From the NCBI GenBank assembly GCA_937981665.1, contig CALJOJ010000044.1, forward strand, positions 1-53,874: 53,874 nucleotides of DNA, given 5' to 3'. The notes under the pieces are model-generated. The model was not told the DNA's origin. It saw only the letters and a list, made by a program, of their open reading frames with translations, and searched no databases. The translations under genes and the position numbers were made by a program. Shown piece by piece: positions 36,098 to 43,806 of the stretch. This DNA is from an uncultured Rubritalea sp. Lineage in GTDB: Bacteria > Verrucomicrobiota > Verrucomicrobiia > Verrucomicrobiales > Akkermansiaceae. The first letter of the stretch is position 1; each line of letters starts with the position of its first letter.

Positions 36098-36901
36098 CTA
36101 GAGCGAAATGAAATGCTCCAACGCCTCGAGCGTACCTAAGCTAGCTAGCCCCTCAGCGATGTATCCGCCCTGCTCGCGCACATGCGCCTTCACCACATCA
36201 TCCGCATTCCCAGGACAAGCCAGCATCCCAGCGTATTTAGGATACAGCATATCCAGGTCATTATGCCCATCACCTATCGTAAATACCCTCTCAGCCCCCA
36301 CACCACAGCGACGCGCTATCTCCGCTAATGAAGTACCCTTATGATAGTCCTTATGACTAAAACGTAAATAAATCGTATTCCGCAAGTAGCCCAGATCCTT
36401 CTGCTCAGAAATGCCAGCATCGATGAACTCCAAGATCCCAGCCATCTCCTCGATAGAGTTCGCTACTATCCCCGCAGGGTCTCCCACCTCGCTCACCCAC
36501 TCAGCCCCCGTATCAGACTCCACGTGATCCTGCACCTGCTTTAGAAATTTCTTCGCCCTCTTATACACCTTCTTATGAGCCTTCTCAGAGCGCACATTCC
36601 ACTCCCTCACAGGCAGCCAACGGTTCATACTCCCAGGAGTATACAGCTCCCGCTCACGCGCCACCATAAAGTCCGGTAAAAACGGAAATCCCCCTTCCAA
36701 GAAACCATCTATCATCTGCGCCTGCGAGCGCCCAGTATTGATCCCCCACACCCAGCCATCTTCACGTAGCTCCTTGATCTTATCAAAGAACGCCGGCTCC
36801 AGCATCGGCTCAGAATCCGGACACACAAGCGTCCCATCGAAGTCAAACGACAACACACCAGTCGTCTTCTCTGGCATCGGTAAAGGCTGTAGCATTGGCA
36901 T
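36098..36901 (-). CDS. HAD superfamily hydrolase (Cof-like)
   Basis: This 267-residue protein has motif I FDFDGTL near residue 20, motif II INTGRS, and motif IV GDGHNDLDML. A cap domain lies between motifs II and III, as in Cof-type sugar phosphatases. The substrate is not predictable. It lies next to pyrH on the same strand. Confidence 0.87.
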   Translation of the reverse strand: MPMLQPLPMPEKTTGVLSFDFDGTLVCPDSEPMLEPAFFDKIKELREDGWVWGINTGRSQAQMIDGFLEGGFPFLPDFMVARERELYTPGSMNRWLPVREWNVRSEKAHKKVYKRAKKFLKQVQDHVESDTGAEWVSEVGDPAGIVANSIEEMAGILEFIDAGISEQKDLGYLRNTIYLRFSHKDYHKGTSLAEIARRCGVGAERVFTIGDGHNDLDMLYPKYAGMLACPGNADDVVKAHVREQGGYIAEGLASLGTLEALEHFISL

Positions 36902-36985
36902 ATTCCTAGCTCTACCCCCTCACCTCCATTTTAGCAAATACCAATCACAACCATAGCCCGTCAGAAACGCTTTACCCATTACCTC

Positions 36986-37236
36986 CCACCCCAGAGAAAC
37001 TGCGCTGAAGGCACAGCAGAAATGAATCAACATCAAATCTCCTGACAGAAGATCATCTGCAAAGTCTAGGGCTTCAGCCCTAGATAAACCACACCCACAA
37101 AAAACTGTGCTGAAGGCACAGCGGAAATGAACACAACATCAAATCTCCTGACAGGAGATCATCTGCAAAGTCTAGGGCTTCAGCCCTAGATACACCCCGC
37201 CCAGAAAAACTGTGCTGAAAGCACAGCGGAAATGAA
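36986..37236. repeat. 105-bp tandem repeat (about 2.4 copies) with hairpins
   Basis: The unit has an exact 105-bp period (first copy from about 36986, second from about 37091, partial third from about 37196). It contains three palindromes: TGTGCTGAAGGCACA, CTCCTGACAGGAG and CTAGGGCTTCAGCCCTAG. The copies differ at a few bases, and the third stops after the first palindrome. The hairpin-rich unit without coding potential looks like a REP/BIME-type element, though no RAYT transposase is in the window. Confidence 0.85.
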
Positions 37237-37479
37237 AGAAGCTCGCAACTCAACATCCCAAACTACCTAACATTACAGCTTAATATCTAAGCTCTGCCAA
37301 CCTCGCGTGATCTTAAATATTTGAACATTAACATTCAATCATCTCGATGAAGAATAAAGAAGAACTTGAACCCATTAACCGCTAATGGTTAAATAAAAAA
37401 ATGATCATTATTTGGGATTCTTTGATGACTTATAAAAATTTGGAATTCTCCTCATACAAACCAACTATCCACCACACTC

Positions 37480-38308
37480 ATGCTAAAGAAACATTTTTCT
37501 GATTACCTTTTAGAAGTAAATAGAGAAGGTAGTGGCAAAGCCAGTGCCTACATTAGGGCAATTGATTTCTCAGAAGCCCGTGAGCTTCGCTGACTGTCAA
37601 AATCTATGGAACCTTACCTCTATTACCAGAGTACAAGACCTCTATACATTCACTTTAGCAGAGAAAAAGAAAGGAGATCAGAGCATCTGGGCGCTAGAAG
37701 GTATACCAAAGAGCTACTTACGTGATGGATTCTGTTCCGCTGCCCTAAATGCTTACCAAGATTTTTTAATCCAATTCCAATACGAGAATATTCTACTCAC
37801 CAAATTTAAAAATCATCAAGGCAACGAAGATGAATTAACAAAGAAGCTATCGGTGGATATAAACTATCCTACTCACCTTTTAGAAGATTTAGATAACCTT
37901 ACTGGTAAAGAAGTAATTCGCTCAGTCAAAACAAGGAGTAACCAGAACGTCTTTCGTAAAATGATACTCCAGATCTATGACAACTCATGTTGTATCACTG
38001 GCTTAAACATCCCAGAAGTCAATCGAGCCAGCCACATCATCCCATGGTCAGCTGACGTAAGTAAAAGGCTAGACCCCAGAAACGGCCTCTGCCTGTCCGC
38101 TACCTATGACGCAGCATTCGACCGTCACCTCATCAGCCTAGATAACGACTATCGCATCATCCTATCCAAGGACATAAAAGACCATTACACTAGCCAAAGC
38201 GTCGATCAGTATTTCCTAAAAAAAGAAGGTGATAAGATTAATCTACCTGCTAAATACAAGCCCGAACTCACCTATCTAGAAACCCACAGAAAAGCGGGTA
38301 GTTTTTAA
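37480..38308 (+). pseudogene. HNH endonuclease, apparently frameshifted
   Basis: The main frame (from GTG 37532) encodes 258 residues ending in a type-2 HNH domain: CCITGLNIPEVNRASHIIPW (H168), NGLCLS (N184) and DAAFDRHL (H199). These nucleases cut DNA and often lie in defence islands. Conserved N-terminal family sequence (MLKKHFSDYLLEVNREGSG) is encoded from ATG 37480 in the previous frame and ends at a stop near 37593. The two frames join around 37560-37575, so one base gained (or two lost) would explain it. Either the gene is broken, or the shorter protein from GTG 37532 is made, or frameshifting occurs. Confidence 0.75.
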
Positions 38309-38383
38309 AATCAACTACGCCATGAGATTCTAATAATGGATAGCGCTTCATGTATCATTCGCCAAACTTTGATACGTGTTAGA

Positions 38384-38772
38384 TTACTTAGGGCTTCCTG
38401 AAAAAGTCTCACGCGACTATTTCATCAGTGCAGCAGAGTCGTTCTTTAATGATAAGAGCTCCGAAAGCAATTCTGCCAGAGAGCGCTGGAGTACCCATTT
38501 TAGTCTTCTTGAATCCTTTGGAGTAGAGGGTTTGGGCTTCATCCCAAGGGACTAGTTGGCTTAATTTAATCCATCTGTTAGAGATTGGTAATTTACCGCC
38601 AAAAGGGTGGATGAAGTCGGTAAATTCAGTTTAATTTGGTTGTTGTCTAATCATGTGAGGTGCACGCTTTTTCAAAGCTTATAATAACATATCCGTGCAC
38701 TTCTAGCTCTAATATCATCCCAAAAGTTGTGTCCTGCATGCTTTGAAATCTTTTTCAGAAAGCCCTAAATAA
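38384..38772 (-). mobile_element. IS5-like element remnant with terminal inverted repeats
   Basis: Two inverted repeats of about 22 bp with two mismatches (38384-38407 and 38749-38772; core TTAGGGCTT-x-CTGAAAAAG) flank 340 bp. Inside is the N-terminal part of an IS5-type transposase. It lies between the HNH gene and the restriction-modification operon. Having both ends but no catalytic domain, it resembles a MITE-like deletion derivative, movable only by a related transposase elsewhere. Confidence 0.8.
38409..38654 (-). pseudogene. IS5 family transposase, N-terminal relic
   Basis: From ATG 38654 the minus frame reads MIRQQPN, then a stop at codon 8, then about 73 codons starting TEFTDFIHPFGGKLPISNRW and continuing IKLSQLVPWDEAQTLYSKGF. 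The segment ...MGTPALSGRIAFGALIIKERL matches the N-terminal domain of IS5-type transposases. The frame ends at 38409, and the DDE catalytic core is missing. Confidence 0.8.
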
Positions 38773-38822
38773 GAAGTATTTAATTCAACTAATTTAGGTT
38801 GGCGCAGGTTACCTCATGTTAA

Positions 38823-39914
38823 TTATTGTGTAAATCTTATCTGTAAATTTAAATTGATGAAAACATTGTCGTTATCTTTGTAGATTTTTCCGTAATCATG
38901 TCTACTTGTCGAAGGACTCTCAAATTTAGTATTATTTAGTAGATAATCCTCAAATAAATTTTTTCTTAGAAGGTGGTAAGAAATTAATTCACCGTCACTT
39001 TTAACAACGATATAACCGCCTGTAGCGTGATGTTTACCTGACCATTCTGACGCGGGAATCATACCTAAAGCTGATTCCGAGAGATATCTTTTAAGTTTGA
39101 ACTCGTAGAATGAATTGCATTTACGAAGTGGATAACCTAAGGGGTTTTCTTTATCCAAAATATCACACATAACTTTCATAGAAGAATTAATCCCTGAGTA
39201 ATGGTGTAATAAACATTCGCTTAAAATTTTTGCTATATCTCGATCAATGAGTAGTAGATTATCAGTATAAACATCTCCAAGTGCTGACTCAAATTCTAGC
39301 TTTGCTCCTATCTCTTCAAGCTTTTCAATGCGATCTTTAACTTTTCTCCGAGTCTTTATTGAGTTGATAGTTGCAATTTGTTCAGCTGAAATATTGCCGT
39401 TTATCCTGTATCTGAAATTTGTGTTTTTTTGAGATGCATTGACAAGAGAGCTTGGTGAGCCGAGTTGAGATTTCACACTAAACCCAAGGTTTTGATTAGT
39501 GGATGTATAGTGATCATGTATTAGAACCTCAATATCGGCTTTTCTTTTTGAATCAGCTTTAACCGATTCTACGCTAATTATCTTGAGAAAATTTGCTAGA
39601 GAGTCCGATAAACTACATGATCCTGACATAGACGATATTTCCTCAAAGAAAGTCGAAACATGCTTAGAGAATTTCTCGATTGGGATATTGCTAATTAGTT
39701 CATCATTACAAATTATGGAAATATTGTCTCCTACTCGTTCATAAAGTTTGCTAATTATTTGTTTATCTACTTTCTCATGTCGAGAGAGACCTACAACATT
39801 ATATGGGGCTTCACAGGATACGGATTGATCAATAGTGCCCTGTTTAAGTTCCCCATCTGCTAATAGTTTGATTAGAACATATGGCTCAGACCATTCTCCT
39901 TTATTTCCTTTCAT
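38823..39914 (-). CDS. Type II restriction endonuclease, HpaII family
   Basis: This 363-residue protein matches the HpaII restriction-endonuclease family at the N terminus (MKGNKGEWSEPYVLIKLLADG) and in the probable nuclease core KADIEVLIHD ... GFSVKSQLGSPSSLVNAS. Family members cut CCGG; that specificity is inferred here. The start overlaps the methyltransferase stop by one base (TAATG), so synthesis depends on methylase translation. The DNA is visibly more AT-rich than the flanking housekeeping genes, and codon choice differs, as expected of a horizontally acquired gene. Confidence 0.85.
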   Translation of the reverse strand: MKGNKGEWSEPYVLIKLLADGELKQGTIDQSVSCEAPYNVVGLSRHEKVDKQIISKLYERVGDNISIICNDELISNIPIEKFSKHVSTFFEEISSMSGSCSLSDSLANFLKIISVESVKADSKRKADIEVLIHDHYTSTNQNLGFSVKSQLGSPSSLVNASQKNTNFRYRINGNISAEQIATINSIKTRRKVKDRIEKLEEIGAKLEFESALGDVYTDNLLLIDRDIAKILSECLLHHYSGINSSMKVMCDILDKENPLGYPLRKCNSFYEFKLKRYLSESALGMIPASEWSGKHHATGGYIVVKSDGELISYHLLRKNLFEDYLLNNTKFESPSTSRHDYGKIYKDNDNVFINLNLQIRFTQ

Positions 39915-41158
39915 TATTTTAAGAAAAGGGTGTTAATTATTTGTTTTGCTGTAGCAGCTATTGCGGGTACAGCCACGGAGTTACCAAATTGTTTATAAGC
40001 ATTAGCATCAGCAACTACTATTCTAAATTTTTCAGGGTATCCTTGCAGTCTTGCCCATTCTCGTGGAGTCATTTTACGAATCCCTTCCCTATTAACGACT
40101 CCTTTGATGTGAGTAATAGGTGTGTAATCTGACAACCTATGATCTATTACTAAATTACGTTCTCTTCCCATTCCTCCACATACTACTGAGTTTGCAATTC
40201 CGTCATCTGGAATAATTGCATAACCAAACCCATTACCTTTTGCTTCATGTCTAGCTCTGTGATCTCTTAGTGTCTGCAGATACACGGTTGACATAAAGTA
40301 CTTCACTGAAACCTCTTCTTCTTCTTTTACGTCTGCGAAAGTAACTACTTTCTTTTTCTTTTGAGGATATTCAAATTCTTTAATATTTTCTTCAGGGTGA
40401 AATCCTACAATAAAAATCCTCTCCCTGTTTTGAGGAACACCATAGTCCTTCGCGTTCAGAATCTGAGGATCTGGAACATAATAGCCTAGGTCCTCTCTGA
40501 GAGTTTTAAGAATAGTTTTCAGAGTTTGTCCGCTTTTGTGGCTAATTAAACCTTTAACATTTTCTAAAAAAAATGCTCTCGGTTGCTTCTCTTTAATAAT
40601 TCTAGCTACGTCAAAAAACAGAGTGCCTCTCGTGTCCTCAAAACCTCCACGCTTGCCTGCTATAGAAAATGCCTGACAAGGAAAACCAGCGCATAGAATA
40701 TCATGATCAGGTACATCTTTTTCGGAAATTTTTGTGATGTCCCCGTATGGATAATCTCCGTAGTTAGCCTCGTAGGTCTGTTTAGCTGATTTATCCCACT
40801 CACTTGAAAAGACACATTTACCTCCGAGTGCTTGAAAAGCTACTCTGAAACCACCAATACCAGCAAACAAGTCGATGAATTTAAATTTGGGATTATTGGG
40901 AGCAGGAAAAGGAACGTCATTATTGGTAAGCTTGAAGTGTAATTGGTCTTCGGCTCCTTCATAAACTAATCTAGTGTCTGTAGCTTCAATCCCTATAAGC
41001 CTACAAAGATCTTCATAGATAAAATGATTTATTCCCGCTGGTTTAATCTCAGGTGAATCTAGAAAATGGGTAGCTATAGCTCTTTCATTTTCGATATCTT
41101 TAATAAGACCGCTATTTAAGACTTCCTCTAGAGCTTGAGGGTATTTAATTTTAAGCAT
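39914..41158 (-). CDS. DNA (cytosine-5) methyltransferase
   Basis: This 414-residue enzyme has an additional N-terminal region of about 90 residues, then motif I FIDLFAGIGGFR, the catalytic motif IV GFPCQAFS (Cys161), motif VI ENV (199-201), motif VIII QNRERIFIVGF and motif X QFGNSVAVP. The methylase would protect host sites, presumably CCGG, against the cognate endonuclease that follows it. It overlaps the controller gene by 8 bp and the endonuclease gene by 1 bp, an unusually tight operon. Confidence 0.94.
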   Translation of the reverse strand: MLKIKYPQALEEVLNSGLIKDIENERAIATHFLDSPEIKPAGINHFIYEDLCRLIGIEATDTRLVYEGAEDQLHFKLTNNDVPFPAPNNPKFKFIDLFAGIGGFRVAFQALGGKCVFSSEWDKSAKQTYEANYGDYPYGDITKISEKDVPDHDILCAGFPCQAFSIAGKRGGFEDTRGTLFFDVARIIKEKQPRAFFLENVKGLISHKSGQTLKTILKTLREDLGYYVPDPQILNAKDYGVPQNRERIFIVGFHPEENIKEFEYPQKKKKVVTFADVKEEEEVSVKYFMSTVYLQTLRDHRARHEAKGNGFGYAIIPDDGIANSVVCGGMGRERNLVIDHRLSDYTPITHIKGVVNREGIRKMTPREWARLQGYPEKFRIVVADANAYKQFGNSVAVPAIAATAKQIINTLFLK

Positions 41159-41384
41159 TTTTAACCCCCTCAGTTAGTTTACTAAGCTCAACTTCAAGAG
41201 CAGAACAAATTTTCAAAGCGGAAAGTATCGTCAAGTTTCTCTCTCCTCTTTCAACCCCCCCGATGTATGTCCTATCTAAATCAGCTTTCTCAGCCAATTC
41301 TTCCTGAGAAATTTGTTGAGACTCTCGAATTGTCCTTATAGTTTCACCCAGTTTTACAAGTGCTAAAATCTTAGTCTTTTGCAT
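41151..41384 (-). CDS. XRE-type controller (C) protein of the restriction-modification system
   Basis: About 77 residues from ATG 41384 (MQKTKILALVK), a size typical of C proteins. The helix-turn-helix reads ISQEELAEKADLDRTYIGGVERGERNLTI. An in-frame TTG five codons earlier is possible. A C-box lies 20-45 bp upstream. C proteins delay the endonuclease until the methylase has acted, and activate or repress their own promoter. Here the order is C, M, R in one operon, so its timing logic may differ from systems where C precedes R. Confidence 0.88.
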   Translation of the reverse strand: MQKTKILALVKLGETIRTIRESQQISQEELAEKADLDRTYIGGVERGERNLTILSALKICSALEVELSKLTEGVKNA

Positions 41385-41406
41385 CCTGCAATAATGCAAG
41401 AATGAC

Positions 41407-41431
41407 GACTATTAGTCCACGGACTATAAGT
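41407..41431 (-). promoter_or_regulatory. C-box operator of the controller gene
   Basis: On the plus strand GACTATTAGTC (41407-41417), CACG, and GACTATAAGT (41422-41431) form two adjacent sites for a dimeric C protein. The half-sites GACT/AGTC and the four-base spacer follow the established C-box pattern of PvuII- and Esp1396I-type systems. The minus-strand TATAGT between them could double as a -10 element. The site lies just upstream of the controller start. Confidence 0.82.
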
Positions 41432-41451
41432 ATCTTTTTCAGTTCCTGTAG

Positions 41452-41598
41452 CACCATGAATACTATGAACTCAAGCAAGCTACATCTATTGATATTTACG
41501 ACATCGATGAGCTGCATAAGAAGAAACGAATGGATCGTAGTCGCTTCATGGCAGTCACCTGCACATGGAAAGAAATCCGCGAAAGCCGAAAACCCTAA
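41452..41598 (+). pseudogene. C-terminal fragment of an unknown gene
   Basis: A 48-codon frame without a start, bounded by a stop at 41449 and TAA 41596, reads HEYYELKQATSIDIYDID and ends TWKEIRESRKP. It looks coding (charged, Asp/Lys-rich) and is cut off at the controller promoter, suggesting that insertion of the restriction-modification genes removed the rest. The family is not recognised. Confidence 0.45.
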
Positions 41599-41607
41599 GC
41601 AACCTCC

Positions 41608-43083
41608 CTACTCCGCAGTTTCTAACCTGACCTTGAAGAACATTTTCGGGTCAGTTGCTGTTGCAGCATAGGTGTATGAGGTAGATCCATCTAGACCATC
41701 CATGTTAGCAGTCACCTCGGTCCAGCTACCTTGCTCCAACGTGCTTGATTTTAACAATGTATAGAGTCGGTTGCTTTCACTGTTCCAGGTGATGATGAAG
41801 TTTCCTCCCTCTTGAGTGATCGAGGAGATTACAAACTGTGACTGGTCATCAGTCGGGTCTGTACCGGCATCATATTCCTCGTGATTTAGCTGACCGTCAC
41901 CATCAGAATCCAGAAGATCTGCAGCTTCGTAATCATTATCCGTAACTAGTCCGTATTTAGCTAACCAGCTGTAGGGAGTGCCATTACTGGTAAGGATGCC
42001 ATCGAAAATCTCATTCATGAGGACAACTGTGTCTGTTCTGAGGATAGATTGACTATCTGTTACATCCACATTCCATGTCCATGCTCCACCGGCTTTAAGA
42101 CAACGTCCCAACCAGTCTGAACCTTGTTCTTGTGTCCACACAAGGTCACCAGAATTCCAAGTCTCCTGAATAGGTATAAACATATGCCCCAGTGATACTT
42201 CATTATCCGCCTCGAAGTACCCCTCAGCAGTATCCTCAATAGCCGTTAGCATCGGTAAATTTACAGCATCACTAGAATTTAATTGAGCTATCGGTGTAGG
42301 GTGGCCAAAGGTGTAGTCCTCGTAGCCTGGGTTGTTATTAATAAGCGGCACTTTCTGACCGTCGTTAAAGGCAAGTACCGCATCTGGGTTATACGTTTTT
42401 ACCGTGTCATGGAGCAGCGGTATATTTCCATTACTAGCATGGTCGAACAACCAGCCATCGATCAATGTGCCATAACGCTCAGCATACTCATCAATGATCA
42501 CCTCCGCATAAGCCGTCTTGTAGGTATCAATAGAGGTATCACCGTATTCTTGAGTAACATAGGCGGCCCAGTTATCCATCGCTTGAGAGGTGAAGTTTCC
42601 ATCTGCATCCTCTACTCCGTCATAAGCGTTTGCAGCACCATGCTTTAACATCGCGGGTCCTTGGGTAGCGCAATAAGCAATGACCTTGATCCCTCTAGCC
42701 TGAAATGCCACCGCCATATCCATAAACAGATCTCTACCATTCATCGGGTCATTATCCGGGCTCGTAGGTGTCGCTCCAGGCGTGAGTAGGCTCAGCACTG
42801 AGTGAGGCGCTACATAAGCATCTCCATGAGCTGCATCTGATAAATTAAAAATAACATATGTCACTCCAGGCATTTCAGCTATCTGATCTGCTAAAATGTC
42901 TGCATCCCAGGAGTCCATATCAGCCTTATCATCAGCTTTGAAACGAAACCCTACTCCCCAAGCGCCAGACATCCATTGCGCATTATGTTCTTGAGCATAG
43001 GTGCTAGTACCCGATAAGACTGATACAGCAACTAAAATTTTTGCTATCTTAATTAGTTTTCTGGTAAGAATTTGTTTCATCAT
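41608..43083 (-). CDS. Secreted glycoside hydrolase-like protein (possible GH29 relative) with dockerin-like repeat
   Basis: This 491-residue protein has a signal peptide (to about TYAQ, residue 30). Residues 31-380 resemble a TIM-barrel glycoside hydrolase of the alpha-L-fucosidase (GH29) type: DGWLFDHASNGN and the preceding YAERYG could hold the nucleophile. It is followed by a calcium-binding type-3-like segment DSDGDGQLNHEEYDAGTDPTD (about 394-414) and a C-terminal beta domain ending MFFKVRL, common in secreted Verrucomicrobiota proteins. Substrate and family are uncertain. Confidence 0.6.
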   Translation of the reverse strand: MMKQILTRKLIKIAKILVAVSVLSGTSTYAQEHNAQWMSGAWGVGFRFKADDKADMDSWDADILADQIAEMPGVTYVIFNLSDAAHGDAYVAPHSVLSLLTPGATPTSPDNDPMNGRDLFMDMAVAFQARGIKVIAYCATQGPAMLKHGAANAYDGVEDADGNFTSQAMDNWAAYVTQEYGDTSIDTYKTAYAEVIIDEYAERYGTLIDGWLFDHASNGNIPLLHDTVKTYNPDAVLAFNDGQKVPLINNNPGYEDYTFGHPTPIAQLNSSDAVNLPMLTAIEDTAEGYFEADNEVSLGHMFIPIQETWNSGDLVWTQEQGSDWLGRCLKAGGAWTWNVDVTDSQSILRTDTVVLMNEIFDGILTSNGTPYSWLAKYGLVTDNDYEAADLLDSDGDGQLNHEEYDAGTDPTDDQSQFVISSITQEGGNFIITWNSESNRLYTLLKSSTLEQGSWTEVTANMDGLDGSTSYTYAATATDPKMFFKVRLETAE

Positions 43084-43273
43084 TGAAGGGATATAATAAG
43101 ACTACCTCAAATTATTCCTCATTCTTGCCAATGAAAACACTTAAACAGCTCTAAATATAGAACACTCGTTAGTAATAGTCTAAGCTCTTGATAGATATTC
43201 TTGAATGAACGCACTTCACAACGGAGACATAGTCTCGCAGATAAATAGCACTCAAATTCAGTCAATAGTATTA

Positions 43274-43720
43274 ATGGAAACCAATCCCTACCAACCACCA
43301 AGTTCTGAAATCAGTAAAAACACTGAATCAATAAGACCCCTTGAGAAGACACATTTCAAATTAGCTATCCTAGCTTGCTGTCTATATATTGCTCCTCTTT
43401 TAGGCCAGCTTGCTTCCTCTGTATATCTCGAATTTACCTTGAGAATTCTTAACTATGACAATACCCCCATTAATGTAGATAACATTAGTACTAGATTATA
43501 CGAGATCATGTACTTCTTCATAGCTACTTTATTCCTTGGCTTTATAGGCATTATCTTCATGCTGCTCACTATCAAGAAGTCTCCACCAGCTTGGTTCTAT
43601 TGTTCCGGTATGTTAATCTCAGCGCTCTGGGCAGTCGTCATCTTCCCACTAGGTCTCATAGTAGGTGTCCCGATGTTCATCACCTTTTTAATCAAGCGTA
43701 AGAACAATCAGCTAAGCTAA
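43274..43720 (+). CDS. Hypothetical membrane protein with NPYQPP motif
   Basis: About 148 residues from ATG 43274 (METNPYQPPSSE). A longer frame to 43205 adds a non-conserved stretch. Three membrane segments (about residues 30-50, 75-97 and 110-140) follow. An N-terminal NPYxPP is a recurring start of membrane proteins in Planctomycetota and Verrucomicrobiota. Function unknown. Confidence 0.6.
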   Translation: METNPYQPPSSEISKNTESIRPLEKTHFKLAILACCLYIAPLLGQLASSVYLEFTLRILNYDNTPINVDNISTRLYEIMYFFIATLFLGFIGIIFMLLTIKKSPPAWFYCSGMLISALWAVVIFPLGLIVGVPMFITFLIKRKNNQLS

Positions 43721-43806
43721 CGGAAAACTCATTAAATCCTAACTATCCCATTCTTAAATATAGAAAATATTTGGCAAATGCTGATTTTCTACTAATCTAC
43801 CAATAT

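What the first reader, a model, noticed from the sequence alone, without database searches (positions are those of the whole stretch)
41151..41431. Compact C-M-R restriction-modification operon with a textbook C-box
Seen: a GACT/AGTC operator pair immediately before a controller gene, which overlaps a C5 methyltransferase gene by 8 bp, which overlaps an HpaII-family endonuclease gene by 1 bp. In well-studied systems C usually precedes R on its own transcript and M is separate. Here all three are coupled, so the delay of the nuclease cannot rely on separate promoters. Translational coupling or internal starts may set the timing. This is an unusual regulatory architecture for a CCGG-type system.
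Basis: partly seen in the sequence, partly recalled or inferred. Interest (0 to 1): 0.85.

Follow-up and report, generated by a model that had tools for sequence, protein, structure and literature searches.

The report
Regulator-first restriction-modification operon with swappable nuclease
This is a bacterial DNA-cutting defence system in which one small regulator gene, its protective enzyme and its cutting enzyme sit in a single overlapping row behind one control switch, and a close relative keeps the same switch, regulator and front of the protective enzyme but carries a different cutter.

Summary
On the minus strand, tandem C-boxes (41432-41407) precede controller gene C (41384-41151). C overlaps a C5 methyltransferase M (41158-39914) by 8 bp; M overlaps an RE_HpaII endonuclease R (39914-38823) by 1 bp. 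The operator matches that of Esp1396I and is unique in the window; C keeps the five DNA-contact residues compared.

M-R overlap is ordinary in this endonuclease family (19 of 30 loci). C in front is rare: 6 of 30, one weak. C-M-R occurs in 5 of 12 same-genus genomes. In one (G004) the 33-bp operator is identical, C is 74% identical and the front of M is related, but the back of M differs and R is an MvaI/BcnI-family enzyme. The regulatory front looks like a reusable chassis.

If M and R share one transcript, C cannot delay R relative to M; their ratio must be set after transcription. M has a strong Shine-Dalgarno, which only 2 of 34 window ORFs have; R has none. Binding, transcription and cut site are untested. 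C systems described in the papers seen mostly place C with R and M apart, but C-headed rows and C-methylase pairs exist elsewhere. Verdict: new variant of a known kind.

The parts
41422..41432 (-). C-box OL (distal), TACTTATAGTC; proposed high-affinity activating site
   Evidence: same letters in L028, L029 and L123
41407..41417 (-). C-box OR (proximal), GACTAATAGTC; proposed repressing site overlapping the -35 element
   Evidence: spacer CGTG at 41418-41421
41391..41419 (-). Proposed weak promoter: TGGACT (41419-41414), 17 nt, CATTAT (41396-41391); start expected at about 41384, the A of the C start codon (leaderless)
   Evidence: inference from the sequence; 4 of 6 matches in each hexamer, below the scan threshold; same -10 letters at the same place in the Esp1396I alignment
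41151..41384 (-). Controller protein C, 77 aa from ATG 41384 (a TTG at 41399 would add 5 aa)
41165..41171 (-). Strong Shine-Dalgarno GAGGGGG of M, inside the end of C (-11.9 kcal/mol)
39914..41158 (-). C5 cytosine methyltransferase M, 414 aa; overlaps C by 8 bp
38823..39914 (-). HpaII-family endonuclease R, 363 aa; overlaps M by 1 bp (TAATG), no Shine-Dalgarno (+1.7)

Best explanation
A C-controlled Type II restriction-modification operon of order C-M-R driven from one autoregulated promoter. C dimers fill OL and activate a weak promoter; at higher level they also fill OR, over the -35 element, and repress it. The transcript starts at or next to the C start codon and reads C, M and R. M is started afresh at a strong Shine-Dalgarno inside the end of C; R is started mainly by ribosomes that have just finished M, at TAATG. 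M and R therefore rise together, and a new host is protected by more M than R per transcript and by a low, self-limited operon level, not by a delayed R. Shown: genes, overlaps, operator, conservation, contact residues, the M Shine-Dalgarno. Inferred: binding, activation then repression, the single transcript, the leaderless start, reinitiation at R, and CCGG as target. The operator, C and the front of M act as a regulatory chassis behind which the specificity half of M and the endonuclease can be exchanged (inferred from one relative, G004).
For: Operator unique in the window; 30 of 33 letters the same in L028 and in L029 (read) and 33 of 33 in L123. The C's best matches among solved structures are C.AhdI, C.BclI and 3clc, the C.Esp1396I complex. 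Residues aligned with R35, T36, Y37, R46 and S52 of C.Esp1396I are kept in the window, L028 and L029, while L030 has H for Y37 and T for S52 together with a changed operator (contacts from passages of PMC4041747). C-M-R in 5 of 12 genus genomes: four with RE_HpaII and G004 with MvaI_BcnI. Shine-Dalgarno of M: -11.9, -12.8, -7.9, -7.5, -12.4 in window, L028, L029, L030, L123; of R: +1.7, -6.0, +1.8, +0.9, -3.7. Only 2 of 34 window ORFs reach -7.5, and M is one. No C-box ahead of M, promoter-like sites at chance level, no minus-strand terminator-like site. None of 8 junction stretches folds markedly better than shuffles (z -1.3 to 1.2).
Against: No transcript, binding or methylome data. The promoter hexamers are weak matches. 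Two minus-strand promoter-like sites lie in or near the way, 40920-40892 inside M (9 of 12) and 39783-39754 inside R (10 of 12); the set is at chance level, but the first could feed R alone. That R lacks a Shine-Dalgarno is ordinary here (22 of 34 window ORFs score 0 or above), and whether ribosomes of this host use the Shine-Dalgarno is unknown; relatives such as Akkermansia are listed as SD-scarce (PMC10783764, passages). L028 R has a moderate Shine-Dalgarno. In PvuII the overlap of C and R did not couple translation, although in Esp1396I C and R are reported as coupled (PMC2997769, passages). The clade tests for a mosaic M were not significant. In L030 the operator and two contact residues differ.
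Confidence: 0.6

Rival explanations
1. M (and R) have a weak C-independent promoter inside the C gene, which gives early M; C only adds to it or caps the main promoter.
For: In Mycoplasma gallisepticum the hsdC-hsdMSR operon has a second weak promoter inside hsdC that reads the downstream genes (PMC5282649, parts 1 and 2 of 3 read). PvuII has a weak C-independent promoter upstream of C (PMC2997769 passages).
Against: No promoter-like site was found on the minus strand inside C, and 11 sites against 12.0 expected for the whole stretch. The scan is a weak test in this phylum.
Confidence: 0.25
2. C is only a repressor of the whole operon, as proposed for the type I HsdC, so M and R are both made at once on entry and then damped.
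For: Same position of C ahead of all genes; hsdC promoter activity about two orders of magnitude below expectation (PMC5282649).
Against: The operator here is the two-box OL/OR type for which Esp1396I-like activation then repression is described (PMC4041747 passages), and the promoter hexamers are weak, as expected for an activated promoter.
Confidence: 0.2
3. The C gene is a passenger: M-R works as in relatives without C and C has no essential role.
For: 24 of 30 M-R loci have no C-like gene found in front (counted).
Against: In 4 of 5 genus loci (window, L028, L029, L123) the operator, the contact residues, the 8-bp C/M overlap and a strong M Shine-Dalgarno are kept although C is only 60-78% identical to the window's; the fifth, L030 (C 47%), keeps the M Shine-Dalgarno and, if M starts at GTG, the 8-bp overlap, but has a different operator and two changed contacts.
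Confidence: 0.08

Closest known systems
Esp1396I (C-R with convergent M; plasmid pEsp1396, L106)
   Same: Operator 26 of 35 letters, same CGTG spacer and box spacing, CATTAT at the same place, the five C contact residues compared; the gene behind C overlaps it by 8 bp
   Different: There the gene behind C is R, and M lies on the other strand; here M is behind C and R comes last
HpaII-family M-R gene pairs without C (Lactococcus petauri plasmid L047, Verrucomicrobiales L007, Flavobacteriaceae L011 and others)
   Same: C5 methyltransferase ahead of an RE_HpaII endonuclease on one strand, often overlapping
   Different: No C-like gene found ahead of M in 24 of 30 loci
Mycoplasma gallisepticum hsdC-hsdMSR (type I), and C homologs beside or fused to type II methylases in other mycoplasmas
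   Same: Controller gene ahead of, or joined to, modification genes (PMC5282649, parts 1 and 2 of 3 read)
   Different: Type I enzymes in the studied case, different binding motif (direct repeats), reported as repressor; the type II cases are listed there without functional tests in the parts that I read
Marinobacter salarius plasmid locus L107
   Same: C overlaps an M gene by 8 bp, then a Type II endonuclease-like gene on the same strand
   Different: N6/N4 methyltransferase, different endonuclease-like gene, plus a second methyltransferase gene on the other strand
C-(small ORF)-C5 M rows in E. coli MB07011 (L121) and a Photobacterium plasmid (L122)
   Same: Similar operator (29 bases: 93.1% in E. 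coli, 86.2% in Photobacterium), all three genes on one strand, 8-bp overlap behind C
   Different: The unknown small ORF, perhaps R, lies before M; its only family hit is weak (PADLOC 0.012 in L121, none in L122)

Membership tests
C-protein-controlled Type II RM systems (Esp1396I/AhdI kind) | Small HTH controller related to C.AhdI/C.Esp1396I with its DNA-contact residues | tested here: met
C-protein-controlled Type II RM systems (Esp1396I/AhdI kind) | Tandem OL/OR C-boxes directly upstream of C | tested here: met
C-protein-controlled Type II RM systems (Esp1396I/AhdI kind) | C directly precedes R | tested here: not met
   M lies between C and R
C-protein-controlled Type II RM systems (Esp1396I/AhdI kind) | M transcribed from its own promoter | tested here: inconclusive
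   M on the same strand between C and R; promoter-like sites at chance level, no transcript data
C-protein-controlled Type II RM systems (Esp1396I/AhdI kind) | C binds the operator and activates, then represses | not testable with these tools
   needs binding and reporter assays
HpaII endonuclease family (PF09561) | Match over the whole profile above the curated cut-off | tested here: met
   342 bits, positions 1-359 of 359, cut-off 25. 26 columns are invariant over 23 aligned sequences, but the window is one of them, so this is not an independent test
HpaII endonuclease family (PF09561) | Cleaves CCGG | not testable with these tools
   CCGG observed/expected is 0.70 in the window, but GGCC is lower at 0.62
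C5 cytosine methyltransferase | DNA_methylase profile with catalytic motif | tested here: met
   343 bits; GFPCQ motif in the alignment; M.HhaI is the best solved relative
Linear RM systems (genes in a row, no C, as worded in PMC5333194) | M and R in a row on one strand | tested here: met
Linear RM systems (genes in a row, no C, as worded in PMC5333194) | No C protein encoded | tested here: not met

The most novel reading that the evidence does not exclude
In this genus a fixed regulatory front (operator, C and the first part of M with its ribosome-binding site) serves as a chassis behind which the specificity half of M and the endonuclease are exchanged as a block. Because C controls M and R together, the system dispenses with a transcriptional delay of R: a linear, C-controlled class of Type II systems that establishes itself by a translational M:R ratio.
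Probability: 0.35. Interest if true: 0.65.

Novelty: new variant of a known kind. Interest (0 to 1): 0.5.

Why it matters
The accepted purpose of C proteins is to delay R behind M. A conserved system in which one C-controlled transcript appears to carry both would separate two roles of C: timing, and level-setting. It would also give a natural case in which only the translational ratio can protect the host. The G004 relative suggests how specificities can change without disturbing regulation: the change-over lies inside M, so control and protection stay in step.

Tried and rejected
Single-box search: GACTNNNAGTC with up to one mismatch is no more frequent than chance (12 against 24 expected); replaced by whole-operator scoring. 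Hairpins hiding the R or M start: none of 8 junction stretches folds markedly better than shuffles. Phage or plasmid carriage of this system: the nearest R is 37.0% identical on plasmids (7 records) and 36.6% on phage records (6); the M front (91 aa) has no plasmid match; one operator pattern has no match in viral contigs; of 13 viral contigs with a C relative, L126 and L127 have an unknown ORF behind C and an N6/N4-methyltransferase-like gene on the other strand (motif-based only). Fold of R: confident model (pLDDT 90.7) but no PDB match at E <= 0.001; HinP1I is the nearest restriction enzyme in the rows shown, at E 0.4, so no fold class is claimed. CCGG avoidance: 0.70 observed/expected, not specific. 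Formal topology tests of the M mosaic: L029+L123 as a clade in the front part has support 73/82, the alternative is not rejected (p 0.10), and the back part is undecided because L123 is a long branch; the mosaic claim rests on the identity contrast and on the different endonuclease. Toy model: in the first run the C loop had not switched on by 600 min and methylation was not complete, so its lower hazards with C (for example 265.7 against 3084.3 for a dimeric R) are cut short; one search replaced it. Parameters are arbitrary.

L013's C-like ORF (E 3e-7, 107 bp from M, no C-box found) is counted among the 6 of 30 but is doubtful. L091's C overlaps M by 4 bp but has no GACT-type operator (best 20 of 35, at background). 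L095 was left out of the 30 because its R is broken; its pieces were searched apart, not mended. Also left out: one duplicate (L090), four loci with M cut by the contig end (L009, L014, L040, L093), and R loci without an adjacent M on the same strand. Of the R hits, 4 of 7 plasmid records and 0 of 6 phage records were fetched, and fragments listed were not.

Literature limits: searches listed no paper that describes a type II C-M-R operon by title or abstract; only passages or parts of nine papers were read. The systematic C-protein survey (Sorokin 2009) is not held and REBASE was not available, so annotated or unread cases may well exist.

Full report
What is there. On the minus strand of 41436-38823 lie a tandem C-box operator, a controller gene C, a C5 methyltransferase M and an HpaII-family endonuclease R. 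C and M overlap by 8 bp, M and R by 1 bp. The operator scores 41.1 bits with a matrix made from six operators outside the window, next best 6.8 in the window and at most 21.9 in 200 local shuffles.

C and its operator. The best matches among solved proteins are C.AhdI, C.BclI and C.Esp1396I. Aligned to C.Esp1396I, the window, L028 and L029 keep R35, T36, Y37, R46 and S52, residues at the DNA interface in the passages of PMC4041747 that I read. L030, whose operator differs, has H and T at positions 37 and 52. Operator and contacts thus change together, in one case only. The proposed promoter (TGGACT, 17 nt, CATTAT) overlaps OR and puts the start at the C ATG; the Esp1396I sequence has CATTAT at the same place. 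This is my reading; neither promoter was checked against mapped starts. A leaderless C-dependent transcript is reported for PvuII (PMC2997769 passages).

How common is C-M-R? RE_HpaII was sought in 98 near relatives (5 with a match), 387 genomes of the phylum (12), the 12 genomes of the genus (4), 395 of the class of a Tenacibaculum relative (20), 369 of the class of an Alteromonadaceae relative (4) and 299 of the class of a Bacillaceae relative (3). The centre genome is included in each count and the sets overlap in part. Ten more loci came from genome contigs and four from plasmids. Among 30 loci with a whole R and, on the same strand in front of it, an M that does not run off the contig (listed), 6 have a C-like gene before M: the window, L028, L029, L030, L091 and, weakly, L013. 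M and R overlap in 19 of the 30. L095, with a broken R, has Vsr, C, M, HNH and R in a row and a GACT-type operator. In trees of 34 M and R rows the four genus members form one group (support 93 in M, 97 in R) and the C label needs three changes; L013 is one of them and three changes may also be a gain and losses, so repeated gain of C is likely but not shown.

The swapped relative. A search of the genus with M led to G004:C67 (L123). It has C (57 of 77 identical), the identical 33-bp operator, an 8-bp C/M overlap, a strong M Shine-Dalgarno (-12.4), and behind M an MvaI_BcnI endonuclease (137.7 bits), while RE_HpaII has no match in G004. C plus M up to GFPCQ is 187 of 234 identical between L029 and L123, more than between window and L029 (167 of 234). 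From GFPCQ on, M is 108 of 237 identical between L029 and L123 and 225 of 257 between window and L029 (Fisher p 1.1e-14 for the L029-L123 contrast). Pairs with the same endonuclease show the opposite contrast, a faster-changing front (p 9.4e-6 for window-L029, 1.6e-6 for window-L028). Tree tests of the two halves were not significant. The simplest reading is a kept regulatory front with exchanged specificity; gradual change of the back of M with replacement of R alone is not excluded.

Translation signals. Few ORFs here have a Shine-Dalgarno: median +0.4 kcal/mol over 34 window ORFs, 2 of 34 at -7.5 or below, M being one (the other is the HAD-type gene at 36098); M is likewise among the few in L028 (2 of 10) and L029 (1 of 6), while L117, L118 and L120 have none of 12, 8 and 9 (ORF starts chosen mechanically). 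R has none in the window, L029 and L030, a moderate one in L028 and a weak one in L123. The exceptional feature is the strong signal at M, not its absence at R. Akkermansia is listed among SD-scarce bacteria in PMC10783764 (passages).

Mechanism. With one transcript, M and R rise in proportion. In a toy model with arbitrary parameters the self-cutting hazard for a monomeric R equals the R:M synthesis ratio divided by the methylation rate constant, whatever the C ramp; for a dimeric R the ramp lowers it by 7-12%. So C cannot do here what it is credited with in C-R systems, unless M has an extra promoter. The most likely scheme is a C-set operon level with protection by the translational ratio. 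The rival of an internal promoter is real: it exists in the type I hsdC operon (PMC5282649).

Surroundings. The block between a HAD-type hydrolase (36098-36901) and nadA (from 43771) holds 6.9 kb in the window, whereas in same-genus G006 (L118) the matched parts of these genes lie about 145 bp apart. The system therefore sits at a variable site, in line with gain by transfer.

Known or new. Passages of PMC5333194 divide C systems into convergent and divergent, with C-R together and M apart, and say that linear systems do not encode C. [quoted passage not shown] PMC3850674 says that in the great majority C is upstream of R in the same orientation. [quoted passage not shown] C-M-R here, C-M-R-like in Marinobacter (L107) and C-ORF-M rows in E. 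coli and Photobacterium (L121, L122) show that C-headed rows exist. Verdict: new variant of a known kind; the chassis with exchanged endonuclease is the most interesting part.

Noticed in passing
37532-38308 (+): HNH_2 gene convergent with R. Its HNH domain is 45% identical to an HNH gene inside the C-M-HNH-R row of L095 and 35% to one beside R in L044; perhaps a recurrent partner of HpaII-family systems.
   Followed up: partly
36902-43770: Variable site: 6.9 kb here between a HAD-type hydrolase and nadA, about 145 bp between the matched parts in same-genus G006 (L118).
   Followed up: partly
38409-38630 (-): Open stretch that resembles the start of a transposase (IS1182-like by recall; no Pfam match) between the HNH gene and R.
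   Followed up: partly
41452-41598 (+): Coding-like remnant without a start directly upstream of the operator; no family match above cut-off and no copy in the loci fetched.
   Followed up: partly
L123 1249-4791: G004: identical operator with C, M and an MvaI/BcnI-family endonuclease, next to a NERD-domain gene.
   Followed up: yes
L121 3569-5522; L122 3066-5024: Rows of C, a small ORF without Pfam match and a C5 methyltransferase behind a similar operator; the small ORF may be an undescribed endonuclease.
   Followed up: partly
38823-39914 (R): The RE_HpaII model (pLDDT 90.7) has no Foldseek match in the PDB at E <= 0.001, and no solved relative by sequence up to E 1.
   Followed up: partly
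G000:C39 (L124 2731-3825 and 3822-4808): A second C5 methyltransferase-like gene in the same genome with an overlapping 328-aa ORF of unknown function that may be its endonuclease, between two large ORFs.
   Followed up: no
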